A DNA stretch of 64,000 nucleotides from Antrihabitans stalagmiti (GTDB lineage Bacteria; Actinomycetota; Actinomycetes; Mycobacteriales; Mycobacteriaceae). The notes beneath the pieces are model-generated. The model was not told where the DNA came from and searched no databases. It saw only the letters and a program-made list of their open reading frames with translations. A program made the position numbers and the translations under genes. The stretch covers positions 120,921 to 184,920 of the forward strand of contig NZ_JAEMNV010000005.1 in assembly GCF_016482825.1 (NCBI RefSeq). Direction: 5' to 3'. Below, in pieces: positions 22,518 through 54,977 of the stretch; position 1 is the stretch's first letter, and each line of letters begins with the position of its first letter.

Positions 22518-22592
22518 GGCGCTTCGCGCCTCGTGAGTCCTTTCGGCGCGCCGGACCTCCGAAAAGACTCACGAGGGGTGGGCCGCCTTTCG
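22518..22592. repeat. Composite palindrome family B, copy 1
   Basis: After the pgi stop come mini-hairpin GGCGC-TTC-GCGCC (22518-22530), then the central hairpin CTCGTGAGTCCTTTCGG (22530-22546) / CCGAAAAGACTCACGAG (22559-22575) with one wobble, then a degenerate GGGTGGGCCGCC right flank. The right end overlaps the proposed start of the next gene. It probably acts as a terminator or mRNA-end structure. Confidence 0.85.
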
Positions 22593-23831
22593 GTAATCGA
22601 CGAGATGTTTCTGCGGTCCCATCGCGGCCTCGGCACGCCCATCGCTATGCAGGGATTGTGGCGCAGCAGCGAAGCGCTCGAGGTCGAGTTGCTCACCTCG
22701 ATCCATTCCGCGCTTGCTAGAGGGCCGTTGGGGCGCAGGGTCGTTCGACCGCGGACCCCCGGTGCGCGGCCGTGGTGGCGACGCGATATCGGCGCATACC
22801 CGCTGTCGATCGAAGCCGCGCCGATCCCTGCCGCCAACCTGCTCGAGTGGGCGGATGCTGCCGGTGCGAACCTCGACCCCACCGACGGACCGGGTTGGCG
22901 GTTCTCGGCGGCACGCCTCGACGACGGCGGAACCGTGCTGTCGCTGGTCTGTTCCCACGTCCTCGCCGATGCGCGCGGGCTTGTGCTTGCCGTCGACCGA
23001 GCGTTGGCGGGTGAGTCCGATTACGTTGTCCCGCAGCCAGGTTCGGACTGGTCGGATGCCCGGGCCCAGTGGGCGATCGTCGCAAAGGGCACCGCTCGCG
23101 CACTCGGCAAACTAGCCACACAGCGCGAGGTGCGTGCCGAACTCGCCCGACCGCCTCGGCTGTCACGATCGGAGTCGGTCGCAACGATCCGAACCGCGAT
23201 CGTCACCGTCGACACACATGAGTGGGACGAGGCCGCAACCTCTTTCGGCGGTTCGGCCAACAGCCTCTTCATCGCGGTGGTCACCGACATCCTCCGGTCC
23301 GCCGGGTACACCGAACCGAGCATCGGTGTGGCACTCCCGATCGATGTCCGCGGCGACGCCGGCATCGACAACGCCATGTCGATGACGGATATCGATGTCG
23401 TGGCGAGCGATTCACCTGCCACGATCCTGGCCAAGTGCCGGACCGCCTACCTCGCGCCAATGACAAGTCCGGCCGGTTTTCCGGAGGAACTACTCGGCGT
23501 GCTCCCCGACCGCCTTGCCCATCGCCTCGCCGAGGGTGCAGGCGAACGCGATGTGCTGTGCTCGAACATCGGTGTTATCGCCGACCGCATCGCCGATCTC
23601 GGTGGGCACCGCAGCACCGGTATCGCGACTCGCGCGCTGCACCCGGGCCTTACGGTCGCGCAACTGAATCGGTTGCGCACCAGGCTGTCCGGGTACCTCT
23701 GCAGGTCGGGCGAGGAGTACACACTCGCTCTCGTCGCCCTCGACCCACAGTTGTTCGGCTCGAACTCGGCACTGCTCGAACTCGCGCTCGAACGTATCGC
23801 GCGCTACGGCGTCACCGCCCGAGCGTGGTGA
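22578..23831 (+). CDS. Condensation/WS-DGAT-like acyltransferase-fold protein
   Basis: 417 residues from GTG 22578, which gives GRLSVIDEMFLRSHRGLG; ATG 22605 is a shorter choice. The start and overall plan resemble CoA-dependent acyltransferases such as wax ester synthases and condensation domains. The active-site motif is HVLADARG (His near 126), a variant of HHxxxDG with a single His. DVLCSNIG may match the DFGWG-like region. Substrate unknown; a lipid or mycolyl-related acyl transfer is a guess. The end overlaps the convergent PNPOx gene by 20 nt. Confidence 0.6.
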   Translation: MGRLSVIDEMFLRSHRGLGTPIAMQGLWRSSEALEVELLTSIHSALARGPLGRRVVRPRTPGARPWWRRDIGAYPLSIEAAPIPAANLLEWADAAGANLDPTDGPGWRFSAARLDDGGTVLSLVCSHVLADARGLVLAVDRALAGESDYVVPQPGSDWSDARAQWAIVAKGTARALGKLATQREVRAELARPPRLSRSESVATIRTAIVTVDTHEWDEAATSFGGSANSLFIAVVTDILRSAGYTEPSIGVALPIDVRGDAGIDNAMSMTDIDVVASDSPATILAKCRTAYLAPMTSPAGFPEELLGVLPDRLAHRLAEGAGERDVLCSNIGVIADRIADLGGHRSTGIATRALHPGLTVAQLNRLRTRLSGYLCRSGEEYTLALVALDPQLFGSNSALLELALERIARYGVTARAW

Positions 23832-24483
23832 CCGGTCGGTGCCGAACATGTTCCGGCACATCGACGCCGGGCTCGAGGTCGGTAGACGTCACCGGGTCGC
23901 CCCAACTCTGCTGCAGCGGAAGCACTCCCGCCCACACGCCACCGGCTTCGATATCGGATAGGTCGTCGCCGGGTCCACCGCTGCGCATCTTGACCGATGC
24001 TTCGGTCAGATCGATCGCATGCACACTCGTCGCAGCCAACTCACGCTTGTTCGGCTGTCGCACCACATCCCACGCGCCGGGCGCGAGGTGTTCGACGATC
24101 GACTGCAGTGCAGCTGCCTTCTCGTCGCCGCTCACCTGGCGGCAGCGGCCGAACACAACGGCGGAGCGGTAGTTCATCGAGAAATGCATGGCGCTGCGCG
24201 CATAGACGATGCCGTCGAGCAGGGTCACGGTGATCGACACGTCGGCCGCGAGCGCTTCGCGCAAACTCCGCGCGCCTGTCGAGCCGTGCAGGTAGAGCGT
24301 GTCTCCTGACCGAGCAAAGCTGGTGGGAAGCACGACGGGCGAGCCGTCGACGACGATGCCCAGATGGCAGATCAAGGCCGCATCCAAGATCTCGTACAGG
24401 TCCGCGCGGTCGGTCCTGGCGCGGTCCTTGAGTCGCTTGACCGTGCTGCGAGGAGTTGGCGAAAGAGTATCGGTGTTGGACAT
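23812..24483 (-). CDS. Pyridoxamine 5'-phosphate oxidase-family flavoprotein
   Basis: 223 residues with the split-barrel pattern of Pyridox_ox_2: LYEILDAALICHLGIVVDG, VVLPTSFARSGDTLYLHGS, and MNYRSAVVFGRCRQV. Such proteins bind FMN or related cofactors. It is divergent from a MocR/PdxR-type regulator across 70 bp, a pairing often seen, which suggests control by that regulator. True PNP oxidase activity is not implied. Confidence 0.85.
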   Translation of the reverse strand: MSNTDTLSPTPRSTVKRLKDRARTDRADLYEILDAALICHLGIVVDGSPVVLPTSFARSGDTLYLHGSTGARSLREALAADVSITVTLLDGIVYARSAMHFSMNYRSAVVFGRCRQVSGDEKAAALQSIVEHLAPGAWDVVRQPNKRELAATSVHAIDLTEASVKMRSGGPGDDLSDIEAGGVWAGVLPLQQSWGDPVTSTDLEPGVDVPEHVRHRPVTTLGR

Positions 24484-24505
24484 AACACCATCTTGCGAGC
24501 AATAG

Positions 24506-24524
24506 TGGCATCACAACAGTGCCA
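24506..24524. promoter_or_regulatory. Inverted repeat in the MocR/PNPOx divergent gap
   Basis: TGGCA (24506-24510) and TGCCA (24520-24524) form an inverted pair; AGTGGC-like steps recur as AGTGCC and, on the other strand, AAAGTGGCC near the MocR start. This repeated arrangement suits MocR/PdxR regulators. Confidence 0.5.
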
Positions 24525-24553
24525 ATTGGACGCAATATCGAAAGGCCACTTTC

Positions 24554-25948
24554 GTGAACGACGACCTCCCGATCACCCTCGATCGCGCCGCAGGCACTCC
24601 ACTGGCGACCCAAGTTGCCGACGCTTTCCGCGCTGCGGCTACCGACGGTCGGTTGCGTGCAGGCGACAAGTTGCCGTCCTCGCGCAGACTTGCCGACACG
24701 CTGGGTGTCAGCCGGACCGTCACGTCTGCGGCGTACGACCAACTGCACGCCGAAGGCTGGATCACGGGCAAGCACGGTGCGGGAACCTTCATCACCACCG
24801 CACCGAAACCCAGCCCGGCACATGATGTTTCCTACGAATTACCCGTCGGCGACGAGGGTTTGATCGACCTTGCGCCCGGTGCGCCCTGCGTCGCGACGAT
24901 CGACAAGGCTGCGTGGCGGCGAGCGTGGCGCGCTGCCGCCGACCATCCCTCCATGATTCGTCCGCAGCGGGCGGGCCTCCCCGACTACCGCGCAGCCGTA
25001 GTCGAACACCTGTTGCGGCACCGAGGCCTGGCGGCCGGTGTCGATTCGGGAACAGTACTGACGACGGCGGGAACAAGCTCCGCCACAGGTGAACTCGCCG
25101 AATCGATCCTGAAACCCGGTGATGCGGTCGCCATGGAGGAACCGGGTTACCGCAGGTCCGTCGGCGCACTGCGCGCGGCTGGAATGACCGTGGTTCCGGT
25201 ACCTGTCGATGCGGAGGGATTATGCGTCGACGCGATACCGAGGGGCGTGAAAGCGGTGTATTGCACACCGGCACATCAGTTTCCGATGGGAGGACGACTG
25301 CCTGCGGCACGTCGGGTTCAGCTTGTCGACCGGGCGCGTCGTGACGGCATCATCGTCATAGAAGACGACTATGACGGCGAATTGCGTTACGACGCAGCAC
25401 CACTGCCTCTACTCGCGTCGATAGGTCCGGATGTGGTCGTCCACCTCGGCACGACGAGCAAGATCCTCACCTCTGCACTCGGTGTCGGCTGGATGGTCGC
25501 ACCCGCCGCTGTCGCACATGCTGTGCTCGAACACCGCGACAGAACCGGAACGAGACCGAGCCCGGCCGGGCAATTGGTTGTCCGCGAACTCGCGACCTCG
25601 GGAGACCTGGCACGCCACCTACGCCGCACCCGCCGGGAGGTATCCGAGCGGCGAGAATTTCTCGTCGAGCAGTGCGCGACCGCGGGACTATCGGTCGTCG
25701 GCGACGATGCCGGCGCACACGTGGTTGTGCTGTTGCCCTCGGCGGAAGCCGAACGTGCGGTCATCGCCGCAGGACGTGCGGCAGGTATCCACCTCGACGG
25801 GCTGAAGCGACACCACTTCGGTCCACAGTCGACGTTCGGGATCGCACTCGGCTACACCGCATGCAGCAGAGCCGAATTGCACGATTCGATTCCCACGGTC
25901 GCGGCGCTACTTGCGCCTTTCGTGCATCGAGGGCCGTCACGTACGTAG
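24554..25948 (+). CDS. MocR/PdxR-type GntR regulator with aminotransferase domain
   Basis: 464 residues from GTG 24554. The GntR winged helix (LPSSRRLADTLGVSRTVTSAAYDQL) occupies ~1-80. A fold-type I aminotransferase-like domain follows from ~105, with a PLP lysine in GTTSKILTSALGVGW (about 303), IIVIEDDYDGELRY and the TPAHQFPMGG loop. It probably senses PLP and regulates the divergent PNPOx-family gene. The DUF2630 gene follows by 9 bp. Confidence 0.92.
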   Translation: MNDDLPITLDRAAGTPLATQVADAFRAAATDGRLRAGDKLPSSRRLADTLGVSRTVTSAAYDQLHAEGWITGKHGAGTFITTAPKPSPAHDVSYELPVGDEGLIDLAPGAPCVATIDKAAWRRAWRAAADHPSMIRPQRAGLPDYRAAVVEHLLRHRGLAAGVDSGTVLTTAGTSSATGELAESILKPGDAVAMEEPGYRRSVGALRAAGMTVVPVPVDAEGLCVDAIPRGVKAVYCTPAHQFPMGGRLPAARRVQLVDRARRDGIIVIEDDYDGELRYDAAPLPLLASIGPDVVVHLGTTSKILTSALGVGWMVAPAAVAHAVLEHRDRTGTRPSPAGQLVVRELATSGDLARHLRRTRREVSERREFLVEQCATAGLSVVGDDAGAHVVVLLPSAEAERAVIAAGRAAGIHLDGLKRHHFGPQSTFGIALGYTACSRAELHDSIPTVAALLAPFVHRGPSRT

Positions 25949-25957
25949 GGTGAACGA

Positions 25958-26203
25958 ATGAGCGAACAGGACATCCTCGCGCGTATCAAAGACCTCGTCG
26001 CCGCCGAACACGATCTGCGATCGCAGACAGCAGCGGGCAAGCTCGATCCCGAGACCGAGCACAAACAGCTTGCCCAACTGGAAACGCTCCTCGATCAGTG
26101 CTGGGACCTGTTGCGGCAGCGCCGTGCTCGCATCGATGCAGGGCAATCTCCCGATGACGCAACAGTGCAGTCCGTCGTACAGGTAGAGGGCTATCTGCAA
26201 TAG
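25958..26203 (+). CDS. DUF2630 family small protein
   Basis: 81 residues, acidic and helical, starting MSEQDILARIKDLVAAEHDLR and with LETLLDQCWDLLRQRRARI typical of DUF2630. Probably a short coiled-coil. It is 9 bp after the MocR gene and 31 bp before the flavoprotein reductase gene, so it may be co-transcribed. Function unknown. Confidence 0.85.
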   Translation: MSEQDILARIKDLVAAEHDLRSQTAAGKLDPETEHKQLAQLETLLDQCWDLLRQRRARIDAGQSPDDATVQSVVQVEGYLQ

Positions 26204-26234
26204 CTGAGCGGGTGTTCGGCGCTACGGTGAGCAG

Positions 26235-27674
26235 ATGGCATCCGATACCTACGACGTCGTCGTAATCGGCGGCGGACCCGCGGGCGAGAACGCCGCGGCA
26301 TACGCAATCGCAGGCAGCAATCGCACAGCCGTGATCGTCGAGCACGAACTGGTCGGCGGTGAGTGCTCCTACTGGGCATGTATGCCGAGCAAGGCGCTAC
26401 TCCGGCCGATTCACGTCCTCTCCGGCGCTCGCGCGATCGCAGGCGTCGGCGAGCTCCTCGCCGCCGGTGGCGTAAACCTCGAGGCCGTGCTGGCACGACG
26501 GGACTCGTTCACACACAAACGTGACGACTCCTCGCAGGTGCAGTGGGCAGAGAACACCGGCATCGACGTCGTACGAGGCCACGGCAGACTGACGGGAGAG
26601 AAGACGGTCGAGGTCAGCGGCGTAGCCGGAACCACAACCCTGACCGCCCGCCACGCGGTGGTGCTTGCGACCGGAACCACGGCGAACGTGCCGAACACGC
26701 CAGGACTCCGCGAAGCACTCCCCTGGACCTCCCGCGACGCGACCAACATGACCGAAGTCCCGAAACGCGTCGCCATCATCGGCGGCGGCGTGGTCGCCTG
26801 CGAAGCCGCCACCTGGCTGCTGGCCTTCGGCGCGGACGAGGTGACGATGATCGTCCGAGGTTCGGCGCTGCTCGCCACCTCGGAAGCATTCGCGAGCGAG
26901 CGGGTCGCCGACGGGCTCACCGGGGGCCGCGGCCGAATCATCTTTCACGCCGACCTGAAGAGTGTCGACCGGCCGGACGCACAGGACACCGGGATCGGGA
27001 CCATCCACGGCGGACCCGCAACACTTGACCTCGGCGACGAACAGATCGTCGTCGACGAGATCATCGTCGCGGCCGGACGCACACCGGCAAGCGCCGACAT
27101 GGGACTGGCAAGTGTCGGCCTCGACGACGGACGCTACGTCGAGACGGACGATCACCTCACCGCCACAGGCGACTGGCTCTACGCAGTCGGCGACATCAAC
27201 GGTCGGGCACCACTCACACACATGGGCAAGTACCAGGCGCGGGTGTGCGGCGACGTGATCGCGGCCAGGGCCGAGGGGCGGGCGATCGACGGTCCGCGTT
27301 ACGCAGCGACCGCCGATCACGGCCTGGTCCCGCAGGTTGTTTTCACCGAACCCGAGGTGGCGTCGGTCGGTCGAACCGAGCGCGAAGCGAAGAAGGACGG
27401 TTTCGACGTCGAGACGGTCGAGGTCGACATCGCCGTCGCAGGGTCATCACTGGCACGCGACGACTTCGCCGGTCACGCCAAGCTGGTCATCGACAGGTCG
27501 GCCGACACGCTGCTCGGTGCAACCTTCGTCGGACCTGACGTCGGCGAGCAGATTCACGCGGCCACCATCGCGGTCGTCGGCAAGGTGCCGTTGGAAACGC
27601 TCTGGCATGCGGTTCCGTCGTATCCGACGGTGTCGGAGTTCTGGTTGCGGTTACTGGAGAAGCGCCGCGGGTAG
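26235..27674 (+). CDS. FAD-dependent pyridine nucleotide-disulfide oxidoreductase
   Basis: 479 residues. FAD-binding GGGPAGENAA (about 12-21), redox-active CSYWAC (C45, C50), NAD(P)-binding IIGGGVVACEAATWL, a second FAD site YAVGDINGRAPLTHMGKYQ, and the C-terminal base pair in HAVPSYPTVSE. It is of the lipoamide dehydrogenase/mercuric reductase class. The N-terminal start without a heavy-metal domain and the altered YPTVSE loop suggest a quinone or disulfide reductase rather than a true E3. The first carboxylesterase gene follows by 10 bp. Confidence 0.9.
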   Translation: MASDTYDVVVIGGGPAGENAAAYAIAGSNRTAVIVEHELVGGECSYWACMPSKALLRPIHVLSGARAIAGVGELLAAGGVNLEAVLARRDSFTHKRDDSSQVQWAENTGIDVVRGHGRLTGEKTVEVSGVAGTTTLTARHAVVLATGTTANVPNTPGLREALPWTSRDATNMTEVPKRVAIIGGGVVACEAATWLLAFGADEVTMIVRGSALLATSEAFASERVADGLTGGRGRIIFHADLKSVDRPDAQDTGIGTIHGGPATLDLGDEQIVVDEIIVAAGRTPASADMGLASVGLDDGRYVETDDHLTATGDWLYAVGDINGRAPLTHMGKYQARVCGDVIAARAEGRAIDGPRYAATADHGLVPQVVFTEPEVASVGRTEREAKKDGFDVETVEVDIAVAGSSLARDDFAGHAKLVIDRSADTLLGATFVGPDVGEQIHAATIAVVGKVPLETLWHAVPSYPTVSEFWLRLLEKRRG

Positions 27675-27684
27675 AGCCGTGGTT

Positions 27685-38996: not shown

Positions 38997-39796
38997 ACAA
39001 CCTCTACCGGGATCTTGCGCCCATCACCGAGGTCGCCTGGGCGGCGATCGAGGAGGAAGCAACGCGAACCTTCAAGCGCCACATCGCAGGTCGGCGTGTT
39101 GTCGACGTGTCGGGTCCACATGGGACCGACTTCTCGGCTGTCGGACTCGGCCGGACTGTGCCGATCGAGTCGCCGGCGGCGGGCGTGCAGGCCCATCAGC
39201 GCACCGTTGCCGCGGTCGTCGAGTTGCGCGTCCCGTTCACGCTGTCGCGCAACGAGATCGACAACGTCGAGCGCGGCGCGCAGGACGCCGACCTCGATCC
39301 GGTCAAGGAGGCCGCGAAGCAGATCGCGTTCGCCGAGGACCGCGCGATCTTCGAAGGTTATGCGGCGGCAGGGATTGCGGGCATCAGGGCAAGTTCGTCC
39401 AACGATGCCGTGCCGTTGCCCAAGGACGCGAAACTGGTGCCCGAGGCGATCACGCAGACGCTCAGCAGCCTTCGTCTTGCCGGCGTCGACGGACCCTACT
39501 CCGTCCTGCTGAGCGCGGACCTGTACGCCGAGGTCAGCGAGACGTCCGACCACGGCTATCCGATCCGCGAACACATCCAGCGCCTCATCGAGGGCGACAT
39601 CATCTGGGCGCCTGCGATCGACGGCGCGTTCGTCTTGACGACCCGAGGTGGCGACTTCGATCTGCAACTCGGCCAAGACCTTTCGATCGGCTACACCTCC
39701 CACGATGCGGACAGCGTGCAGTTGTACTTCCAGGAATCGCTGACATTTCTCGTCTACACCGCAGAAGCTGCGGTCACCATGGAACCGACCGTATGA
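38993..39796 (+). CDS. Family 1 encapsulin shell protein
   Basis: 267 residues: MNNLYRDLAPITEVAWAAIEEEA at the N-terminus, HIAGRRVVDVSGPHG, RNEIDNVERGAQDADLD, AEDRAIFEGYAAAGI and a C-terminal LYFQESLTFLVYTAEAAV (HK97-fold strand). It self-assembles, typically as a 60-mer, around cargo bearing the SLKIGSL-type peptide. It lies between the DyP gene and a membrane protein gene, with ATGA overlaps on both sides. Confidence 0.96.
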   Translation: MNNLYRDLAPITEVAWAAIEEEATRTFKRHIAGRRVVDVSGPHGTDFSAVGLGRTVPIESPAAGVQAHQRTVAAVVELRVPFTLSRNEIDNVERGAQDADLDPVKEAAKQIAFAEDRAIFEGYAAAGIAGIRASSSNDAVPLPKDAKLVPEAITQTLSSLRLAGVDGPYSVLLSADLYAEVSETSDHGYPIREHIQRLIEGDIIWAPAIDGAFVLTTRGGDFDLQLGQDLSIGYTSHDADSVQLYFQESLTFLVYTAEAAVTMEPTV

Positions 39797-40335
39797 ATGT
39801 GCGCGCGGGAGTAGTACCCCTCGCGCGAACGGCGTTGTATGCGGCGACCGCCGTGGTCGTCGGGATCGTTGTGCTCGTCTTCGTCGTCGCGGTGTTCGGT
39901 GCCAATCGGATCGTCACCGGCCTGATCGCCGGCTTCGTGATCGGCGCGGCGTTGTACCTGACGTTGACCACGTTGCACAGGATCACCCTCACCGACGAGG
40001 CGATCACAGTTCGCGAACTCCTGCATAAGCAGGTGCTGTCATGGGACGACGTCGTCGGCTGTCGATTCGAGGTGGAAACCCATCCGGAACCCCACCACCG
40101 TCGAGACGAAAGCTGGCTTCTTGCATTGTATTTCGGGTCCGTCGGCGCCGGCGGTGGCGGTTTGGCACTTGCGGTGCTCGAGCCGGTCACCCATCCGTAC
40201 ACCAATGCCCGCGAGATGCATCAGCGCGAGATGATCGAATCCATCTTCGCGATGGCAAGGCGCAAGGGCTTGGACATCAGAGTCTCGCCCTCCATCGCCG
40301 CTGCGGTGCAACAGCATTGGAAAATCACGATCTAG
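39793..40335 (+). CDS. Membrane protein with PH-like domain, third gene of encapsulin operon
   Basis: 180 residues from an ATG overlapping the encapsulin stop (ATGA). Two hydrophobic segments (about 11-36 and 42-60) are followed by a PH-like stretch (ITLTDEAITVRELLHKQVLSW) and another weakly hydrophobic part (LLALYFGSVGAGGGGLALAVL). No enzyme motif. Tight coupling suggests a role linked to the encapsulin, such as membrane docking, but this is inferred. Composite palindrome B begins directly after its stop. Confidence 0.75.
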   Translation: MNVRAGVVPLARTALYAATAVVVGIVVLVFVVAVFGANRIVTGLIAGFVIGAALYLTLTTLHRITLTDEAITVRELLHKQVLSWDDVVGCRFEVETHPEPHHRRDESWLLALYFGSVGAGGGGLALAVLEPVTHPYTNAREMHQREMIESIFAMARRKGLDIRVSPSIAAAVQQHWKITI

Positions 40336-40405
40336 GGCGCTCCGCGCCTCGTGAGTCCTTTCGGAGGGCCCGACCTCCAAAAGGACTCACGAGCGGCGTA
40401 GCCGC
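40336..40405. repeat. Composite palindrome family B, copy 2 (bidirectional)
   Basis: It fills the whole gap between two convergent stop codons. Mini-hairpin GGCGC-TCC-GCGCC (40336-40348), central arms CTCGTGAGTCCTTTCGGAGG (40348-40367) / CCTCCAAAAGGACTCACGAG (40374-40393) with one wobble, then mini-hairpin GCGGC-GTA-GCCGC (40393-40405). Probably a two-way terminator. Confidence 0.9.
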
Positions 40406-41164
40406 CTACCCCAATCTTCGGAGCACGGCGAGCGGCGCGATACCGACCACCTTCGCGAAAGCGGTCCACGGCCACCACGGCACGTAGGCGTTGGCCGGCT
40501 CCTTCTCGATGGCGTCGACCATCGCCTTGTGACCCTTCTCGGCGCTTGCCATCAGCGGTGTCTTGCCTGCCTGCGCCGTCATCTCGGATTCGATGTAGCC
40601 GGGGAGCAGAGTCGTCACCGCGATCGGCTTGTTCAGGACGTCGAGCCGTATTCCTTCGGCCAAGTGCGCGGCAGCGGCCTTCGACGCGGCATAGGTCGTG
40701 ACGTTGCCTCGCATGCCGCGCACAGCGCTGACGGAGGAGACGACAACCAGATGACCCGCGTTGCGTTCGCGGAAGATCTGCATTGCCGCTTCGCACTGAG
40801 CAAGCAGCGCAATGAAGTTGGTCTCCGCGGTCTGCTTGTTCGCATCGAAACGTCCGGTGCCGACGGGTTGGCCCTTGCCGAGGCCTGCGTTCGCGATGAC
40901 ACGATCCAGTCCCCCGATCTCCTGGTCCGCTTCGGTGAACACACTGAACACGGCATCGTGGTCGTTGACGTCCAAAGTCCGGACGAGCACCGAGATCTCG
41001 GGATGGCTGGCAGTGAGTTCCGCGGCCAATGCATCGAGCCGGTCGGTGCGGCGCGCGCACAAGACCAGGTTTCGTCCCTTGGCGGCGAAGAGACGTGCCA
41101 TTCCCTCCCCGAGGCCCGAACTTGCACCCGTGATCAGGATGTTCTGGCGGACCGGCTTGCTCAC
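40406..41164 (-). CDS. Short-chain dehydrogenase/reductase
   Basis: 252 residues. Cofactor loop ITGASSGLGEGMA, NNAG variant VIANAGLGKG, catalytic Ser (VSSVSAVRG) and YAASK. The Arg in CARRTDR suggests NADP preference. C-terminal helix VPWWPWTAFAKVVG resembles SDRs acting on lipids or steroids. It starts within the acyl-CoA dehydrogenase stop (4-nt overlap), so the two form an operon. Confidence 0.92.
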   Translation of the reverse strand: MSKPVRQNILITGASSGLGEGMARLFAAKGRNLVLCARRTDRLDALAAELTASHPEISVLVRTLDVNDHDAVFSVFTEADQEIGGLDRVIANAGLGKGQPVGTGRFDANKQTAETNFIALLAQCEAAMQIFRERNAGHLVVVSSVSAVRGMRGNVTTYAASKAAAAHLAEGIRLDVLNKPIAVTTLLPGYIESEMTAQAGKTPLMASAEKGHKAMVDAIEKEPANAYVPWWPWTAFAKVVGIAPLAVLRRLG

Positions 41165-43420: not shown

Positions 43421-43485
43421 CGCCGCGGTCGTGAGTCTTTTCGGAGGGTCTGCCCGCCGAAAAGACTCACAAGGCGCGGAGCGCC
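43421..43485. repeat. Composite palindrome family B, copy 3
   Basis: Central perfect 14-bp arms GTGAGTCTTTTCGG (43431-43444) / CCGAAAAGACTCAC (43457-43470); on the right mini-hairpin GGCGC-GGA-GCGCC (43473-43485), 1 nt from the stop of the minus-strand gene at 43487. The left mini-hairpin is degenerate (CGCCGCGG). Confidence 0.85.
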
Positions 43486-43486: not shown

Positions 43487-43915
43487 TCAGTCCGTAAAGG
43501 TGATCCGCACGGAGATCGGATTCGTCTGCAGCGCCCGAAACGTGTAGCCGGCAAGTGCGCTCGCGATGCGATTGTCGGCGAAGGTGCGTGCGCGAGCGTC
43601 GACGTCGTCGTCGGGTACGAACTCCGCATTTCCGCTACGCCATTCGTCGCCTTGGCGAAGTCGAACGCGGGGGTCGGCGGTGATGTTGCTGCCCCAGCCC
43701 GAGCGGCGACCGTGCTGCGAGATCACCCAGGCGCCGGTCGCGTCGACGGAAACCGACACCGGCACCCGCCGGACCTGGCCCGTCTTGCGCCCGGTTGTCT
43801 CCAACTCCGCCATGATCGTCGAGCGGACCCCGACCTTGTCGAGAGCCGCGACGAGTGGATTGGCCACGTAGCGGCCGACCCCTCGTTCGAATCGGAATTT
43901 CAGAGGTGTTGCCAT
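43487..43915 (-). CDS. Deazaflavin (F420)-dependent nitroreductase-family protein
   Basis: 142 residues with the Ddn/F420 split-barrel pattern: AELETTGRKTGQVRRVPVSV, GAWVISQHGRRSGWGSNITADPRVRLR in pieces. Such proteins use F420H2 to reduce quinones or other small molecules. It follows the OYE-type gene by 21 bp in the same direction, so probably one operon of reductases. Confidence 0.88.
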   Translation of the reverse strand: MATPLKFRFERGVGRYVANPLVAALDKVGVRSTIMAELETTGRKTGQVRRVPVSVSVDATGAWVISQHGRRSGWGSNITADPRVRLRQGDEWRSGNAEFVPDDDVDARARTFADNRIASALAGYTFRALQTNPISVRITFTD

Positions 43916-48161: not shown

Positions 48162-48175
48162 CTCCCAGGCTTCCG

Positions 48176-48236
48176 CAACCACATGGTTGACAACGGGATA
48201 CCGACCAGCTTAACCTCATATTCAACCAAACGGTTG
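48176..48236. promoter_or_regulatory. Two CAACC-N4-GGTTG operators of the ArsR unit
   Basis: CAACCACATGGTTG (48176-48189) and CAACCAAACGGTTG (48223-48236) are inverted repeats 47 bp apart, the second 12 bp before the ArsR ATG. This pattern is typical of ArsR regulators placed before AHSA1 genes; autoregulation is likely. Confidence 0.8.
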
Positions 48237-48248
48237 AGGAGCGCTCGA

Positions 48249-48599: not shown

Positions 48600-49090
48600 T
48601 GTCAACGACTGATACGAAGCACGAAACCGAGATCACTGCAGGCACAACGCTGCCGACGATCGTGGTCGTCCGCGAATTCGATGCGCCCGTCGACCGGGTA
48701 CACCGCGCCTGGACCGATCCAGTCCTTTTTGCGCAATGGCTCGGACCGAAGTCGCTCGAAACACGAATCGAGCAGTGGGACTGCAGAACCGGTGGCAGCT
48801 GGCGATACTCGTCGATCCGTGACGGCGAGGCGATCGCAAGCTTCTTCGGCTCGTTCCACGAGATCCGGTCCGACCGCATCGTGCAGACGTTCACCTACGT
48901 CGGATTCCCGGATGGTGTTGCGCTGGAGACGATTCGGTTCGACGCGCTGGCCGACGACCGGACTCGCATCACGTCGACCATGCTCGTCGACAGCTTCGAA
49001 GGTCGTGACGGCCTCTTGTCGAGCGGCATGGATGTCGGAGTCACAGAGGGTTACGTCAAACTCGACGCATTGCTGGGGCGCACAGCATGA
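48596..49090 (+). CDS. AHSA1/SRPBCC-domain protein
   Basis: 164 residues. TIVVVREFDAPVDRVHRAWTDPVLFAQWLG in pieces is the AHSA1 signature; GGSWRYSSIRDGE and the C-terminal helix SSGMDVGVTEGYVKLDALLG complete the fold. Middle gene of an ArsR-AHSA1-DinB-like operon, with 4-nt overlaps at both ends. Ligand unknown. Confidence 0.9.
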   Translation: MMSTTDTKHETEITAGTTLPTIVVVREFDAPVDRVHRAWTDPVLFAQWLGPKSLETRIEQWDCRTGGSWRYSSIRDGEAIASFFGSFHEIRSDRIVQTFTYVGFPDGVALETIRFDALADDRTRITSTMLVDSFEGRDGLLSSGMDVGVTEGYVKLDALLGRTA

Positions 49091-49647
49091 ATCCGGCCGA
49101 GGAGCACCGCGCGATCGCTGCGACGTTCACCGACCGTGTCGAGGGCGTCACGAACTGGGACGCGCCCGCGCCGCCGGAAGGCTGGCGTGCACGCGACGTG
49201 GTTCGCCATCTCGTGGAATGGTTTCCCGCTTTCCTACGGGGCGGTGCGGGCATCGAATTGGCAAGCGGCCCTTCGGTCGACGACGACCCTGTCGAGGCAT
49301 GGCGGGTGCATTCCGCTGCGGTGCAGGGCGTGCTCGACGACCCGGCTACAGCAGCAAAGTCGTTGCGGAATCCCAATACCGGCGACCTCCCGGTCCCACA
49401 GGCGATCAGCATGTTCTACACGGCGGACGTCTTCATGCACACCTGGGATCTCGCGCGAGCGACCGGACAGGACGAGACACTGGACCCGCAGCGCTGCGCA
49501 ACTATGCTCGCCGGAATGGAACCGATGGACGAAATGCTGCGCACGAGCGGACATTACGGCCCGCGGGTGCAGGTTCCCGACGACGCCGACGCTCAGGTCA
49601 AGTTGCTCGCGTTCATCGGTCGCGACCCCCTTGGCACCGAACGTTAA
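49087..49647 (+). CDS. TIGR03086-type DinB/mycothiol-dependent family protein
   Basis: 186 residues. WDAPAPPEGWRARDVVRHLVEW and FYTADVFMHTWDLARATGQ hold the His residues of the DinB/MDMPI four-helix fold, likely a divalent metal site. Third gene of the ArsR operon. Such proteins may use mycothiol in detoxification (family knowledge, not shown here). Its end overlaps the TetR gene by 4 nt. Confidence 0.85.
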   Translation: MNPAEEHRAIAATFTDRVEGVTNWDAPAPPEGWRARDVVRHLVEWFPAFLRGGAGIELASGPSVDDDPVEAWRVHSAAVQGVLDDPATAAKSLRNPNTGDLPVPQAISMFYTADVFMHTWDLARATGQDETLDPQRCATMLAGMEPMDEMLRTSGHYGPRVQVPDDADAQVKLLAFIGRDPLGTER

Positions 49648-50159
49648 TCCGACTTCGGCAACAACCGCTCGACAACTTTCGCGTACAAGGTCGGGTCCGG
49701 CGCTGCTAGCCCCAGCATCGAGGCGAGAAACACCCCGTCTCCGACGAGCCGAATGATTTCAGCTTGCACAGGGTCCCCGATTTCCGCCCGTAGGGCGTCG
49801 TCGTAGGCGGCCATCGCTTCGATCACAGCCTTCTTTACGGTGCCTTCTGTCCCGTCGACGCTGCGTAGCACCGCAATGAGTGAACCGTAGAGCGCCGTCT
49901 CCGCCGGGTCGTCTGCGGAGCGTAGGTACCACTCCGCCATCGACGTTCCCGCTTCGGCGAACTGCTGGTCGGAGCGCTCGCTCTGTCGGCGAACCATCCC
50001 AGCGAGCAATGCTTCCTTGCTGCGAAAGTGATAAAGCAGCCCGCCTTTGGATACACCGGCCTTTGCTGCGACCGCTTCGAGCGTGACCTGAGTGAGTCCG
50101 CCCTCGATCAGCAGCGCCTCTAGTGCGTCGAGGATTCGGTCGGGCGTGCTGGGTGCCAT
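49644..50159 (-). CDS. TetR-family repressor
   Basis: 171 residues from ATG 50159 (MAPSTPDRILDALEALL). HTH: VTLEAVAAKAGVSKGGLLYHFRSKEALLAGM. The C-terminal domain is helical and resembles repressors of DHA2 drug pumps such as LfrR. It is divergent from an MFS pump; two operators in the gap fit repression of both. Confidence 0.92.
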   Translation of the reverse strand: MAPSTPDRILDALEALLIEGGLTQVTLEAVAAKAGVSKGGLLYHFRSKEALLAGMVRRQSERSDQQFAEAGTSMAEWYLRSADDPAETALYGSLIAVLRSVDGTEGTVKKAVIEAMAAYDDALRAEIGDPVQAEIIRLVGDGVFLASMLGLAAPDPTLYAKVVERLLPKSD

Positions 50160-50170
50160 GTAAATCACTT

Positions 50171-50224
50171 TACCGGCTGGACGGTTCAGTGCTAGCCTAT
50201 GACTACTGTACCGGCTGGACGGTA
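50171..50224. promoter_or_regulatory. Two TetR operators between the repressor and pump genes
   Basis: TACCGGCTGGACGGTT (50171-50186) and TACCGGCTGGACGGTA (50209-50224) share the inverted repeat TACCG-N6-CGGTA. They lie 38 bp apart, one at each promoter side. Confidence 0.88.
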
Positions 50225-50257
50225 TAGCTCAATTTGTACTCGAACAGGAGAATTTCC

Positions 50258-51781
50258 GTGACGATCACCAAGGCCGTCGAATCCGGTACGCCGGTTCGCG
50301 CGACGCGCCGCGAATGGATCGCCCTTATAGCGCTGTCGCTCGCTGTCCTACTGATTTCCGTCGACGCGACGGTCCTCGACCTCGCGTTGCCCGCGATCAG
50401 CGCCGACCTCACCCCGAGCAGCACGCAGTTGCTCTGGATCATCGACGTCTACTCGTTCGTCCTCGCAGGCCTGCTCATCACGATGGGCACCCTGGGCGAC
50501 CGGATCGGGCGACGCAAGCTGCTTTTGATCGGTGCCGCTGGGTTCGGTGTCGCATCGGCGATTGCCGCGTGGTCGGTCGATCCCGAAATGCTGATCGCGG
50601 CCCGCGTGCTGCAGGGCATCTCCGGCGCGACCTTGATGCCGGCCACACTCGGCCTCATTCGCTCGATGTTCCGCGACGCTCGCCAGCGCACCGCCGCCAT
50701 CGGCGTGTGGAGCGCGATGGCAGGCGGCGGTGCCGCAGGCGGACCGCTGATCGGTGGTTGGCTGCTCGAGCACTACTGGTGGGGCGCGGTCTTCCTCATC
50801 AACGTCCCAGTCATGCTCGCGTTGATCGCCGTCGGTCCGTACCTGATTCCAGAATTCAAGGACCCGAACCCCGGCCGCTTCGACCTGATCAGCGCAGTGC
50901 AGTCGATGGTCGCGATCGTGCCGATCGTGTACGCGGTCAAGGAAACCGCGGTCCACGGCCCGACTGCCGAGACTGCGATCATCGGCCTCGTCGGCGCGTT
51001 GGTCGGCTGGCTGTTCATCCGCAGGCAGCGGATCCTGAAGGACCCGCTGCTCGATCTCGAACTGTTCGCCAACAGGCACTTCTCGACCGCGGTTCTGACG
51101 AACCTCATGTCGGTGTTCGCGCTTGCCGGCGTGCTGTTCTTCGGTTCGCAATACCTGCAGTTGGTGCTCGGCAAGTCACCGCTCGAAGCCGGTTTGCTGA
51201 TGTTGCCGGGCACCTCGGCGAGCATCGTGACGTCGCTCCTTGCGGCCTGGCTCGTGCGTCGCTGGCAGCCACGGCTCGTGTTGTCCGCGGGTCTTGCGGT
51301 CTCGGCCATCGGTGCGGCTGCGATGGTGTTTTTGCAGGCAGACGCCGGAGTCGTGCTGTTTATGCTCGCGTTCGTTCTGGTCGGCTTCGGTGTCGGCATC
51401 GGACTGACTTTGACGTCCGACATCGTGGTCAGCTCGGTCCCAGCCGACCGTGCAGGCGCGGCGTCGGCCGTCTCCGAGTCGGCTTACGAGCTTGGCATCG
51501 CGCTCGGTGTAGCCATCCTCGGGTCGGTTGTGATGAGCATCTTCCGTGGTGACGTGGACGTGTCCGACCTCGCGGACGCCGACAAGGCGGTTGCGCAGGA
51601 CACGCTCGGCAGCGCTGTCGACGTTGCGCACACGCTGCCTGCGGAGACCGGGCAAGCACTGCTCGAATCCGCGCAGGCCGGGTTCGTGAGCGGCATGCAC
51701 GTGGCAGCGATCCTCGTTGCCGTGCTGCTCATCGCCAACGGTGCTCTTGTCATGCGGATGCTGCGACCGCATCGCAGTTAG
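50258..51781 (+). CDS. MFS drug efflux pump, DHA2 (14-TMS) family
   Basis: 507 residues from GTG 50258 with ACAGGAG upstream. Fourteen hydrophobic segments are visible. Motif A GDRIGRRK, motif C-like GGGAAGGPLIGGWLLEHYWW and acidic LISVDATVLDLALPAI in TM1. Resembles LfrA/EmrB exporters of cationic drugs by proton antiport. Controlled by the divergent TetR repressor. Confidence 0.92.
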   Translation: MTITKAVESGTPVRATRREWIALIALSLAVLLISVDATVLDLALPAISADLTPSSTQLLWIIDVYSFVLAGLLITMGTLGDRIGRRKLLLIGAAGFGVASAIAAWSVDPEMLIAARVLQGISGATLMPATLGLIRSMFRDARQRTAAIGVWSAMAGGGAAGGPLIGGWLLEHYWWGAVFLINVPVMLALIAVGPYLIPEFKDPNPGRFDLISAVQSMVAIVPIVYAVKETAVHGPTAETAIIGLVGALVGWLFIRRQRILKDPLLDLELFANRHFSTAVLTNLMSVFALAGVLFFGSQYLQLVLGKSPLEAGLLMLPGTSASIVTSLLAAWLVRRWQPRLVLSAGLAVSAIGAAAMVFLQADAGVVLFMLAFVLVGFGVGIGLTLTSDIVVSSVPADRAGAASAVSESAYELGIALGVAILGSVVMSIFRGDVDVSDLADADKAVAQDTLGSAVDVAHTLPAETGQALLESAQAGFVSGMHVAAILVAVLLIANGALVMRMLRPHRS

Positions 51782-51788
51782 AGCTGGT

Positions 51789-51825
51789 CACTGACGGGTC
51801 GGGCCGATCTGCCGACCCGTCAGTG
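51789..51825. terminator. Two-way terminator after the MFS gene
   Basis: Perfect 14-bp arms CACTGACGGGTCGG (51789-51802) / CCGACCCGTCAGTG (51812-51825), 9-nt loop. It overlaps the last codons of the convergent DinB-like gene. Confidence 0.85.
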
Positions 51826-52425
51826 CTGCCAACTCGGCGACCGACCGAGCCCGAGCAGGATCCGGTCCAGCGTCGACGCACTCGCACCAACCAACCCCGG
51901 CGCGAACGGCGCACCGGGCGCCAGTCTCATGTCGTCGTCGGGCACGGTTTCCGCAATCTGCAGGGTCGCCGCGGCCAGTTCGTCGTCGACGGTGATCGTG
52001 TTTCCGATCGAGCGCGCGACGTCCCAGGCGTGCACGACCGAGTCGACGAGATGAAACCGCAGCAAGGCCGCGCCGGGAAAGGTCTGCTCGGCGCTGAACT
52101 CGAGCAGCACACACTCTCTCGTCAGCGCGCCTTCGCCGGCGAAGGCGTCGATCACACGCTCGGACGCGGCCAGGTACGCACCCACTGGATCGTCGAAGTC
52201 GCGCAGTTGCCAGATCGCAGGGTCGGCGCCGTTGCCCTCGACGGCCGCGGCGAAACCGAGATTCTGAACCGTCATGTGCTGCAACAGTTCCCGTAGGTTC
52301 CACGCCGCGCAGGGCGTTGCGTATTCCAAGTGGTCGGCACGTACCGGCGATACCGCGTCGACGCTCAGGTCGACTGCCCGGGCGTGCAGAGAAAGCTGGG
52401 CTTCCGAATCCGATTTAGTAGGCAT
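51820..52425 (-). CDS. TIGR03086-type DinB-like protein
   Basis: 201 residues from ATG 52425 (MPTKSDSEAQLSLHARA); an ATG two codons upstream is also possible. YATPCAAWNLRELLQHMTVQNLGF and RFHLVDSVVHAWDVARSIG carry the metal-ligand histidines. Divergent from a MarR gene; a palindrome overlaps its start codon, so MarR probably represses it. Confidence 0.88.
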   Translation of the reverse strand: MPTKSDSEAQLSLHARAVDLSVDAVSPVRADHLEYATPCAAWNLRELLQHMTVQNLGFAAAVEGNGADPAIWQLRDFDDPVGAYLAASERVIDAFAGEGALTRECVLLEFSAEQTFPGAALLRFHLVDSVVHAWDVARSIGNTITVDDELAAATLQIAETVPDDDMRLAPGAPFAPGLVGASASTLDRILLGLGRSPSWQH

Positions 52426-52452
52426 ACGCATATCGTACGCGCATGCCTACTA
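52416..52452. promoter_or_regulatory. MarR operator overlapping the DinB-like start
   Basis: TAGTAGGCAT (52416-52425) and ATGCCTACTA (52443-52452) are perfect 10-bp arms with a 17-bp centre that is itself rich in ACGC/GCGT. It covers the start codon of the minus gene and lies 25 bp before the MarR ATG. Confidence 0.8.
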
Positions 52453-52477
52453 TTTGGGCGAGGGTAATCTTCGAGTT

Positions 52478-52924
52478 ATGGTGGCCGACCGACCGGACCT
52501 CGCCGCGATGCTCGCGCCGCTCGTACGGGCACTCATCGCGATCGAGCAACCCATCCTCGACACCAACGACCTCACGATGTGGGGTTACACGGTTCTGCTG
52601 CGCCTGGACGACTCACCGACCCGCACTCAGGCGGCTCTCGCGCAGTCGATCGGCGCCGACAAAACCCGAATCATCCGCGTCCTCGACGACCTCACCGAGC
52701 GTGGCTACATCCTGAGAAAGCCTGATCCGTCCGATCGCCGTGCGCATCTGATCTCGCTGACACCCGCCGGTCGCGAGGTCCGAGACCGCGCGCAAGTCGA
52801 GATTCAACGGCGCGAAGAGGTCGTCCTTGCAGCACTTCCGGCCGGCGAACGGCGCAGCTTTCTCCGAGCACTACAGCAGCTTTCCCGCTCGGTCGAGGCC
52901 GACGGACCGAGCGGTCGCGAGTGA
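52478..52924 (+). CDS. MarR-family regulator
   Basis: 148 residues from ATG 52478 (MVADRPDLAAMLAPLV). Winged helix: SPTRTQAALAQSIGADKTRIIRVLDDL, wing RKPDPSDRRAHLISLTPAG. Divergent from a DinB-like gene with a shared palindrome. Confidence 0.93.
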   Translation: MVADRPDLAAMLAPLVRALIAIEQPILDTNDLTMWGYTVLLRLDDSPTRTQAALAQSIGADKTRIIRVLDDLTERGYILRKPDPSDRRAHLISLTPAGREVRDRAQVEIQRREEVVLAALPAGERRSFLRALQQLSRSVEADGPSGRE

Positions 52925-53026
52925 CCCGGGACCCCCGCACGGCCGCGCGGGCGGCACGTCACAGCATTCGTGACCTCGACATTCGATAGCCTGTCACTGA
53001 CACCCGCCACCGAGGAAGCGAGTCGG

Positions 53027-53833
53027 ATGCTCGTCCTAGCGCACGTCAGCGATCTTCATTTCGACGGCGGTCGACGCAATGTCAAAAGAGCCGGCCGAGT
53101 CATGAAGTATCTCAACGGTTTACCGGGACGCGTCGACGCCGTACTCGTCACAGGCGATATCGCCGACCGTGGCAGGCCTGACGAGTACCAGCAGGCTCGC
53201 GCGATACTCGACACCGACATACCGGTGCTCTGCCTGCCCGGCAATCACGACGACCGCTCGGAATACCGCACTCACTTCCTGAACGAGGAAGGTTCGGGCC
53301 CGATCAATCGGGCGCACATGATCGGCGACGCGATCGTGGCGATGTGCGATTCCTCCGTGCCGGGCCGCCCCGGCGGACTACTCGCCGACGAAACCATCAC
53401 CTGGCTACGAGCCGTCCTCGACGACGCACCGCCGGCCGCGCCCATCCTGATCGCCGCACATCACCCCCCGCAGAAACTCTTCACCCCGATCGTGGATCGC
53501 ATCCTGCTCGACGACACCGACCCGCTCGAAGAAATCATCCGAAGCGATTCCCGAATCGTCGGGATGTTCTGCGGTCACGCACACACGTCAGCCGTGACGA
53601 CGTTCGCCGGCGTACCGCTCGTCGTTGCACCGAGCGTGTCGTCCGTGCTAGGTCCTGAGTGGGAGGGCGACGGCCGTTCGCACGATCCGGTCGTCGACTA
53701 CGACGCTCCCCCGGCCATCGCGTTCCACGTCATCGACGACGACCACCGACTGACCACCCATTTCCGTTCCATCGCCAAAACGAACAGTGCCCACGGGTTC
53801 AGGCGGTCGGCTCAGCCGACGCTGCCGACGTAG
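53027..53833 (+). CDS. Calcineurin-like metallophosphoesterase (Icc/CpdA type)
   Basis: 268 residues from ATG 53027 (MLVLAHVSDLHFDG) with GAGGAAG upstream; GTG 52970 is an alternative. All five metal blocks: DLHFDG, GDIADRG, GNHDD, AHHPP and GHAHTS. Likely a cyclic nucleotide or related phosphodiesterase. The 3' end overlaps the AraC gene by 22 nt, tail to tail. Confidence 0.92.
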   Translation: MLVLAHVSDLHFDGGRRNVKRAGRVMKYLNGLPGRVDAVLVTGDIADRGRPDEYQQARAILDTDIPVLCLPGNHDDRSEYRTHFLNEEGSGPINRAHMIGDAIVAMCDSSVPGRPGGLLADETITWLRAVLDDAPPAAPILIAAHHPPQKLFTPIVDRILLDDTDPLEEIIRSDSRIVGMFCGHAHTSAVTTFAGVPLVVAPSVSSVLGPEWEGDGRSHDPVVDYDAPPAIAFHVIDDDHRLTTHFRSIAKTNSAHGFRRSAQPTLPT

Positions 53834-54876
53834 GCGCGTCGACGTTTCCGCTGGTACGCGGCGGGCGTCGTACCCTTCCATCGTTTGAAGGCGTAGATGA
53901 ACGTGGACGCTTCCGAATAACCGAGCCGGATCGCGACGTCGGAGACCGACAGCGGCGTTGTGGACAACATCTGCTCCGCGAGCGCTTCACGCACCTCGTC
54001 GAGCAGTGCCCGGTAACTCGTGCCGGCGTCGGTCAGCCGTCGCCGCAAGGTGCGCGTACTGGTATTGAGACTGCGGGCAACCTCGTCGATCCCCGCACTG
54101 GCACCACCCACCTGTACCAACCGTTCCCGAACCTCGTGCGCTATGCCGGTACGCGCACGGCGTCGCGTCACCATCGCGCCACACTGCGCCTGACACATGG
54201 CGAGTGTTTGTGAGTTGGCTTGCGGCAGTTCGAGATCGAATATCGCAGGGTCGAAGGTGAACGAGTTGACCGCACGGTCGAAAGTAGCGGCGATGCCGAA
54301 CACCGCCGAGTAGTCGTCCCCGCTCGGCGGCGCCGGGTAGGAGAAGGTCACGGTGCGCAGCGGCATGCTCGCGCCGAGTAGATCCGACAGCACCGTGAAC
54401 ATCGCAGCGGTGTCGCGTTCGACGAGAAATCTCCGGACATCGTCGGGAACCCGGTCGATCAGGAGGCGTCCCACGATCTCGTCGCGGCCGAGTTCCACGA
54501 CCGGTATGCAGAAGGTGAAACTCAGTTCGAGATAGCGCAACGCCATCGCAACCGCGTCCCGCAGCGTCGGACTGCTCACACACGCGAACCCGAAGATGCC
54601 GAACGTCGTGACGCGATAGCGGCGGCCGACATCGATGCCGAGACCCGGGGTGTCGCCGAGCGCCCGCACCAGATTTCGAACCACCGCCAGCTCGACCCGG
54701 GCGTCGATCTGAGCGTCGGGGTCGTCGAGCAGGTCGGCGGTCAGGGTGGTGTCGCGCAGCAGTTCGTCCTGGTCGACGCCATGGTCGCGGCCGTATCGAA
54801 CCAACAGCGCGACACTCGCGACGCTCCTCGGAAAATCCCAGTCCAGCACACCGGGGATCGGAACGACTTCTGCCAT
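53812..54876 (-). CDS. AraC-family regulator (Arabinose-binding-like N-domain)
   Basis: 354 residues from ATG 54876. N-terminal ~210 residues of the PF12625 type (GLGIDVGRRYRVTTFGIFGFA). Two HTHs at the C-terminus: IDEVARSLNTSTRTLRRRLTDAGTSY and VSDVAIRLGYSEASTFIYAFKRWKGTTP in pieces. Such regulators often control nearby lipid or alcohol catabolism, but none is adjacent. Composite palindrome B lies upstream. Confidence 0.92.
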   Translation of the reverse strand: MAEVVPIPGVLDWDFPRSVASVALLVRYGRDHGVDQDELLRDTTLTADLLDDPDAQIDARVELAVVRNLVRALGDTPGLGIDVGRRYRVTTFGIFGFACVSSPTLRDAVAMALRYLELSFTFCIPVVELGRDEIVGRLLIDRVPDDVRRFLVERDTAAMFTVLSDLLGASMPLRTVTFSYPAPPSGDDYSAVFGIAATFDRAVNSFTFDPAIFDLELPQANSQTLAMCQAQCGAMVTRRRARTGIAHEVRERLVQVGGASAGIDEVARSLNTSTRTLRRRLTDAGTSYRALLDEVREALAEQMLSTTPLSVSDVAIRLGYSEASTFIYAFKRWKGTTPAAYQRKRRRAYVGSVG

Positions 54877-54905
54877 ACACACCAGTATGGCCGAAAATCT
54901 CGATA

Positions 54906-54977
54906 GGCGGCTTCGCGGCTTGTGAGTCTTTTTGGTGGTTCCGCCCTCCGAAAAGACTCACGAGCGGCGTAGCCGCC
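54906..54977. repeat. Composite palindrome family B, copy 4
   Basis: Central arms CTTGTGAGTCTTTTTGGTGG (54919-54938) / CCTCCGAAAAGACTCACGAG (54945-54964), 17 of 20 paired, then mini-hairpin GCGGC-GTA-GCCGC (54964-54976) directly abutting the CDF stop at 54978. The left flank GGCGGCTTCGCGGC is a weaker hairpin. Confidence 0.85.

What the first reader, a model, noticed from the sequence alone, without database searches (positions are those of the whole stretch)
22518..54977. Family of composite three-hairpin palindromes starting 0-1 nt after stop codons
Four copies (22518-22592, 40336-40405, 43421-43485, 54906-54977) share the order mini-hairpin (5-bp stem, 3-nt loop), central 14-20 bp hairpin with GTGAGTCyTTTyGG, and a second mini-hairpin, some flanks being degenerate. 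Reading from the gene, each follows a stop codon directly: stop, 0-1 nt, GGCGsyhCGCsGC, TyGTGAGTC. Copy 40336 fills the gap between two convergent stops exactly. Such precise placement suggests either a special class of terminator or mRNA-end element, or a mobile palindrome with a stop-linked target. I know of no published description, but I could not search.
Basis: seen in the sequence. Interest (0 to 1): 0.75.

Follow-up and report, generated by a model that had tools for sequence, protein, structure and literature searches.

The report
Stop-codon palindromes dispersed through actinobacterial genomes
The four palindromes are copies of a short DNA repeat found more than a hundred times in this genome, with a 40-letter core usually pressed against the end of a gene; related repeats occur in other soil bacteria, and jumping genes use them as landing sites.

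Summary
The genome (genus of Antrihabitans stalactiti) holds 110 strict copies of GTGAGTCYTTTYGG-N12-CCRAAARGACTCAC. Of 67 examined, 56 have a stop codon within 25 nt of the core and 41 at 13-16 nt; uniform intergenic insertion predicts 1.6% for the latter.

The core belongs to a wider family, GTGAGT-N28-ACTCAC: 33 of 120 genomes sampled from one related family, five Rhodococcus, 0 of 196 others sampled across the class. Interiors are genome-specific. The half-sites vary independently in four genomes, as a protein-read DNA site would, but are correlated at one position in A. stalactiti. Insertion sequences land at the arm/centre border in 11 of 11 junctions seen, with a 12-bp duplication in 3 of 3 pairable cases. 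Congeners share some sites but carry different interiors there.

Best reading: a new superfamily of REP-like palindromes, without RAYT in most carriers tested, used as insertion-sequence targets. Spreading agent and effect on transcripts are unknown. New variant of a known kind.

The parts
22514..22516 (+). TGA stop of the phosphoglucose isomerase gene, abutting the element
22518..22530 (+). left mini-hairpin GGCGC-TTC-GCGCC of copy 1
22533..22572 (.). 40-bp core of copy 1 (0 mismatches in the arms)
22575..22589 (.). degenerate right flank of copy 1; no supported gene ends here
40333..40335 (+). TAG stop of the left gene (39793-40335; no Pfam match, but orthologs in three congeners)
40336..40348 (+). 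left mini-hairpin of copy 2
40351..40390 (.). 40-bp core of copy 2; site empty in G001, G002 and G003
40393..40405 (-). right mini-hairpin of copy 2
40406..40408 (-). TAG stop (CTA on the + strand) of the convergent short-chain dehydrogenase gene 40406-41164
43431..43470 (.). 40-bp core of copy 3; left flank degenerate
43473..43485 (-). right mini-hairpin of copy 3
43487..43489 (-). TGA stop of the F420H2-dependent quinone reductase gene 43487-43915
54907..54919 (+). left mini-hairpin of copy 4 (one mismatch; no gene ends here)
54922..54961 (.). 40-bp core of copy 4; absent next to the orthologous gene end in G002 and G003
54964..54976 (-). right mini-hairpin of copy 4
54978..54980 (-). TGA stop of the cation efflux gene; the G003 ortholog ends with the same residues and stop

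Best explanation
The copies belong to a new superfamily of REP-like extragenic palindromes. Each is a 40-bp, two-fold symmetric double-stranded DNA site, in this genome a 14-bp arm, a 12-bp centre and a 14-bp arm. It is read half by half by protein, not maintained as a base-paired hairpin. SHOWN: near-fixed length, dispersal, abutment on stop codons, empty orthologous sites, shared sites with genome-specific interiors, and exact insertion of a mobile element at the arm/centre borders. INFERRED: that a protein reads the halves; that a still unidentified agent (not RAYT in most carriers) spreads the sites into gene ends, where they do least harm and may mark or end transcription from both sides, as E. 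coli REPs are reported to act on mRNA and translation; and that the insertion sequence uses the palindrome as a safe landing site, cutting 12 bp apart at the borders of the centre.
For: 110 strict copies, reversed control 0. Positions 1, 2, 3, 5, 9, 10 and 14 never vary in 134 half-sites, while 4, 8, 12, 15 and 18-20 vary freely. Paired cells do not exceed shuffles: 533 of 737 against a mean of 545.4. No solo half-site at 1 mismatch or fewer in 994 kb. In the DNA held here, 9 of 9 insertion-sequence junctions in G000 and 2 of 2 in A. stalactiti read arm(14)-centre(12)-IS end; 3 of 3 pairable insertions show the 12-bp centre duplicated. Stop at 13-16 nt in 41 of 67 copies; in A. stalactiti 47 of 58 copies have a stop within 25 nt. 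Empty orthologous sites: 40336 in three congeners; 24152 and 305296 of G931 in three congeners. No Y1/RAYT match in G000-G003, G931, G910, G959, G926, G626, G950, G462, G935 or G917.
Against: In A. stalactiti the halves are correlated at position 12 (34 of 49 paired, shuffle mean 17.1), as expected for a hairpin or for recent copying of symmetric masters. The G000 mini-hairpins are pairing-constrained (82 of 134 fully paired, shuffle mean 24.7). No binding protein and no spreading agent was identified. No target duplication around the element itself was seen. Three carriers (G947, G922, G911) do have Y1 transposases, though none of the four such loci fetched holds an element. At G931 site 245174, G947 and G959 have what look by eye like ordinary intrinsic terminators where G931 and G910 have the element, which points to a transcript-end role at the RNA level. 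Length is not perfectly fixed: cores of 39, 41 and 45 nt occur in G003, Rhodococcus and family f14.
Confidence: 0.55

Rival explanations
1. Bidirectional RNA hairpins at gene ends (intrinsic-type terminators or 3'-end stabilisers) that evolve in place and act after transcription.
For: RNA folding of the four copies, z -4.1 to -8.7. Placement behind stops and between convergent genes: 8 of 155 convergent versus 2 of 154 divergent pairs in C1, and 13 of 67 versus 4 of 67 in G931. Terminator-like hairpins, judged by eye, at the same site in relatives. Pairing kept at position 12 in A. stalactiti. Mini-hairpins more often intact on stop sides (70 of 78 versus 39 of 56).
Against: No covariation between arms in G000, G931, G626 or G950. 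No preference for G-U over A-C mismatches on the transcribed strand (position 8: 7 versus 7). No T-run, and the terminator scan of 37000-56900 hits none of the three copies in it. In 21 of 29 tandem cases in G000 the next start lies 26-80 nt past the core. Hairpin function does not need invariant letters.
Confidence: 0.2
2. A purely selfish miniature transposon family with no role in the host; the stop link reflects target choice plus purifying selection.
For: Patchy distribution: 0 copies in G001 and G002, 197 in G003. Empty orthologous sites. One copy lies in frame inside a called ORF (L084). The gene end was replaced at G931 site 24152. Some copies outside contig C1 have 3-4 arm mismatches or worse.
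Against: Sites are shared between G931 and G910 (3 of 4 G910 copies in 240 kb; hypergeometric 2e-4, all pairs taken as eligible) with genome-specific interiors, not independent decay. In contig C1 all 21 copies have 0-2 mismatches and no half is solo at 1 mismatch or fewer. No target duplication. No recurrent transposase-like family among flanking genes, judged by eye from the clusters.
Confidence: 0.2
3. The sites are created or maintained by the insertion sequences that land in them, as scars or dedicated landing pads.
For: All 11 IS junctions found in the held DNA lie at the arm/centre border, in G000 and A. stalactiti. In G931 a different repeated end abuts the centre at two places, though its exact boundary could not be fixed.
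Against: The 12-bp centres differ between insertions, so the IS does not carry them. By eye the IS ends share only a short stretch (TGAGTC) with the arm. In contig C1 every half-site with at most 1 mismatch is in an intact pair.
Confidence: 0.07
4. Ordinary GTAG-type REPs spread by a RAYT transposase.
For: Abundance, palindromy, TAG among the abutting stops (41 of 64), placement near stops; Y1 transposases in 3 of 12 carriers of family f14.
Against: No Y1_Tnp match in G000-G003 or in 9 of 12 carriers of family f14, the one with 339 copies included. No one-sided unpaired tag; on sides without a gene end the base before AG is T in 11 of 39.
Confidence: 0.02

Closest known systems
REP sequences / BIMEs of Escherichia coli
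   Same: Hundreds of extragenic palindromes; many within 15 nt of a stop codon (446 of 4,072 in PMC12306157, which quotes an earlier study that proposed 260 of 496 to act in translation; abstract and passages seen); often between convergent genes; targets of insertion sequences (PMC1525189, passages seen).
   Different: 40-bp core, fully two-fold symmetric, GTGAGT at both ends, genome-specific interior, no RAYT in most carriers tested.
GTAG- and CGTC-tagged REP superfamilies (PMC3733652, passages seen)
   Same: REP termini often supply the TAG stop of flanking ORFs; CGTC REPs also seem to lack a dedicated transposase.
   Different: Those carry an unpaired tetranucleotide tag at one end; here both ends are the same paired hexamer. 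A term search of its main text found no Actinobacteria, Rhodococcus, Amycolatopsis or Mycobacterium.
REP-targeting insertion sequences (IS1397, IS621, ISKpn1 and others; PMC1525189, passages seen)
   Same: IS elements that insert specifically into REP palindromes at gene ends.
   Different: Here the duplication is the exact 12-bp centre between two 14-bp arms; the transposase body is masked in the data and its family is not determined.
Intrinsic (Rho-independent) terminators
   Same: Stem-loop right behind stops, bidirectional between convergent genes.
   Different: No T-run; strict letter conservation; no arm covariation in four genomes.

Membership tests
REP sequences (general) | short palindrome, more than 100 dispersed, mostly extragenic copies | tested here: met
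REP sequences (general) | placement near gene ends | tested here: met
   56 of 67 copies
REP sequences (general) | target of REP-specific insertion sequences | tested here: met
   11 of 11 junctions in the held DNA at the arm/centre border
GTAG / CGTC REP superfamilies | unpaired GTAG or CGTC tag at one end | tested here: not met
   both ends are paired GTGAGT; the outer border is AG, preceded by T in 11 of 39 sides without a gene end
GTAG REP superfamily | RAYT (Y1_Tnp) in the genome | tested here: not met
   0 of 10 genomes (7 of them carriers); 3 of 12 carriers of family f14 have Y1 matches (G947, G922, G911), 9 have none; no element in the four Y1 loci fetched
MITE | target-site duplication around the element | tested here: not met
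   direct repeats of 4 nt near the borders in 2 of 46 copies (shuffle mean 3.0); of 3 nt in 13 (mean 10.4)
MITE | autonomous parent transposon with the same ends | tested here: inconclusive
   none noticed among flanking-gene clusters, no solo halves in C1; whole genomes not annotated and some stretches masked
Intrinsic terminator | T-run directly after the stem | tested here: not met
   and direct reading of the window copies; one G931 site (288545) has an outer stem plus T-run shared by three species
Intrinsic terminator | ends transcripts in vivo | not testable with these tools
   needs 3'-end sequencing
Rfam RNA families | match at gathering score | tested here: not met
   no match at any copy in the window or in seven other loci

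The most novel reading that the evidence does not exclude
The palindromes are bidirectional roadblock sites at gene ends: a dedicated two-fold symmetric DNA-binding protein, whose specificity shifts from genus to genus, sits on all of them. The whole set of 100-300 sites then changes its interior letters in concert, while the outer GTGAGT and the positions at gene ends are kept. This would be a bacterial counterpart of protein-bound transcription terminators, and a case of concerted evolution of dispersed 40-bp sites.
Probability: 0.15. Interest if true: 0.85.

Novelty: new variant of a known kind. Interest (0 to 1): 0.64.

Why it matters
The known tagged REP repeats reside mainly in Proteobacteria (PMC3733652, abstract passages seen), and GTAG REPs are thought to depend on RAYT transposases. 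Here is a superfamily in Actinobacteria with a 40-bp rule, no RAYT in most carriers tested, close abutment on stop codons, and turnover of the interior at shared sites. It bears on how dispersed short repeats spread, why REPs sit at stop codons, and how some actinobacteria mark gene ends. The exact 12-bp target duplication implies a protein that already reads the palindrome, which gives an experimental handle.

Tried and rejected
RAYT/Y1 transposase as general agent: rejected. IS630-type TA target duplication: rejected, because AG, not TA, is conserved on sides without a gene end, and direct repeats do not exceed shuffles. Random insertion into coding ends with the element supplying the stop by chance: does not fit the reading-frame split (53 sides at 13-16 nt and 14 at -4), although it seems to have happened at G931 site 24152. 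Phages, plasmids and viral contigs: no match. Recurrent neighbour genes: the clusters shown looked metabolic, transport or regulatory. Conservation of sites between G000 and A. stalactiti: one locus with clear orthologs, a gene pair that flanks one copy there and two copies in G000; no more than chance by a rough estimate of mine outside any call. A 42-nt palindrome in G002 proved single-copy. Enrichment of elements at synteny breaks (8 of 13 versus 8 of 109 orthologous pairs in G910) is confounded by operon structure and not used.

Sampling limits. The A. stalactiti loci came from a strict pattern and are biased at positions 8 and 12; the 49 cores are not biased at position 12. Only 67 of at least 134 G000 copies (loose-pattern count) were examined, and six half-sites met in the fetched stretches were left out. 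G931 was tiled over 400 kb only. In family f14 the reversed control pattern matched in 2 of 120 genomes, so single matches there may be chance. The class sample held no genome of family f14. PMC12306157, PMC3733652, PMC1525189, PMC5217627, PMC1590033 and PMC4210621 were not read whole: abstract, outline or search passages only. The listings of ten paper searches showed no description of these palindromes in that open-licence library; subscription papers are mostly not held there.
Full report
WHAT IS THERE. The four copies are as described. Each has a 40-bp core, GTGAGTCYTTTYGG-N12-CCRAAARGACTCAC, flanked through 2 nt by mini-hairpins of about 13 nt, two of the eight degenerate. A stop codon abuts the element on 5 of 8 sides. 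Four of the five genes ending there have Pfam matches; the fifth, 39793-40335, has orthologs in three congeners.

GENOME-WIDE. The window's genome, G000, is in 44 contigs. It has 156 + 153 exact half-sites, 0 for the reversed control, and 110 strict full copies. I tiled one contig of 994 kb and fetched 40 other stretches; 67 copies were analysed. All have a 12-nt centre. In the tiled contig the 21 copies have 0-2 arm mismatches (the scan took up to 3 in the left and 4 in the right arm); elsewhere up to 4 were met and one with a still worse partner was left out. Distances from stop to core peak at 15 nt (31 sides) and 16 nt (13 sides), with 14 sides where the TGA inside the core's own GTGA is the stop. 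Of 67 copies, 41 have a stop at 13-16 nt, against 1.6% expected from uniform intergenic insertion; among one-sided copies it is 23 of 34 against 2.1%. Abutting stops are TAG 41, TGA 21, TAA 2; all called C1 genes have TAG 229, TGA 569, TAA 64. The genes were called with my own simple caller, and the element carries stops in two of three frames, so part of the abutment may be made by the element itself.

RELATIVES. Of four genomes of this genus, G000 and G003 carry the element; G001 and G002 do not, even with a loose pattern (G003 197, others 0). In 401 genomes of the family, 7 had the strict pattern, G000 included. Five Rhodococcus genomes, recognised by identical cores in the named scan, carry 1-45 copies with the looser pattern, and one further genome of that genus none. 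In family f14, 33 of 120 genomes and 19 of 46 genera match GTGAGTNNTT...AANNACTCAC; the reversed control matched in 2 genomes. The highest counts are 339, 120, 107, 65 and 41. In 196 other genomes drawn from the class there was no match. The interior differs by genome.

SYMMETRY WITHOUT PAIRING. In G000, seven positions never vary in 134 half-sites, and others vary freely. Left and right halves vary independently: 533 of 737 variable cells are paired against a shuffle mean of 545.4. The same holds in G931 (300 against 310.6), G626 (232 against 237.7) and G950 (82 against 83.1). Orientation makes no clear difference. By contrast, the mini-hairpins are pairing-constrained (82 of 134 fully paired, shuffle mean 24.7), though inherited subtypes may explain part of this. 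Against this picture, A. stalactiti shows correlated halves at position 12 (34 of 49, mean 17.1), which could be recent copying of symmetric masters or hairpin selection.

EMPTY AND SHARED SITES. Copy 40336 is absent in G001, G002 and G003, where the same convergent genes end 4 nt apart or less. Copy 54906 follows the same stop and C-terminus as the element-free G003 ortholog. Three congeners of G931 were compared. Sites 24152 and 305296 are empty in all three; at 24152 the relatives have about 35 nt, with the last codons and the stop, where G931 has the element. At 142767, 245174 and 288545 G910 also has a 40-bp element, but with a G910-type interior; 288545 is also filled in G947, and its outer arms are shared by all three. 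Of the four copies in 240 kb of G910, three lie at sites that also carry one in G931 (hypergeometric 2e-4, assuming all pairs equally eligible). So positions are inherited at least in part, while interiors change in concert within each genome. I have no mechanism for that.

INSERTION SEQUENCES. Nine contig ends of G000 and two of A. stalactiti stop inside an insertion sequence, and in all 11 the element side reads 14-bp arm, 12-bp centre, IS end; the IS ends were found nowhere else in the DNA held here. Three insertions could be paired, and each has the same 12-bp centre on both sides. This is a 12-bp target duplication that exactly covers the centre. In G931 two junctions with a different repeated end lie at or near the same point, but the boundary could not be fixed. 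The exact junctions imply a protein that recognises the palindrome with two-fold geometry. The IS bodies are masked in the data and were not pursued.

INTERPRETATION. The family works like REPs: abundant, extragenic, near stops, targeted by insertion sequences. It fails the defining tests of the GTAG and CGTC superfamilies and, in most carriers tested, of RAYT association. I therefore call it a new superfamily of REP-like palindromes. The most likely mechanism is a DNA site read by protein; a role in ending transcripts is plausible but not shown. Papers used: PMC12306157, PMC3733652 and PMC1525189, abstract or passages only.

Noticed in passing
G000 contig ends: L151, L157, L163, L171, L177, L331, L342, L348, L355: Nine contig ends stop inside an IS (ends CTGT...ACAG) inserted at the centre of an element; three junction pairs show a 12-bp duplication and join contigs C4-C23, C34-C4 and C8-C3.
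   Followed up: yes
L036 and L051 (A. stalactiti contig starts): A related IS end (CTGTCCAGTC) sits at the same position of the palindrome in A. stalactiti.
   Followed up: yes
G931 contig C1, about 302 and 92003: A different repeated end abuts the centre of the palindrome in G931; its coding fragment looks IS1380-like to me (recalled, not tested) and part of it is masked.
   Followed up: partly
L084, 677-716: A copy lies in frame inside a called ORF of the Pseudonocardiaceae MAG and is read through as protein.
   Followed up: no
MAG loci L068, L069, L075, L081: Cores are flanked, on at least one side, by hairpins of unrelated, site-specific sequence (by eye).
   Followed up: partly
G931 400 kb compared with G910 and G947: Gene pairs holding an element are more often non-adjacent in relatives (8 of 13 versus 8 of 109 in G910); operon structure may explain this.
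   Followed up: partly
G002:C1:1234659-1234700: A single 42-nt palindrome flanked by CACCCC/GGGGTG-like arms, not repeated in that genome.
   Followed up: yes
G959 at the site orthologous to G931 142767 (L287): A tandem array of small TGCAACNAATG hairpins sits where G931 and G910 have the 40-bp element.
   Followed up: no
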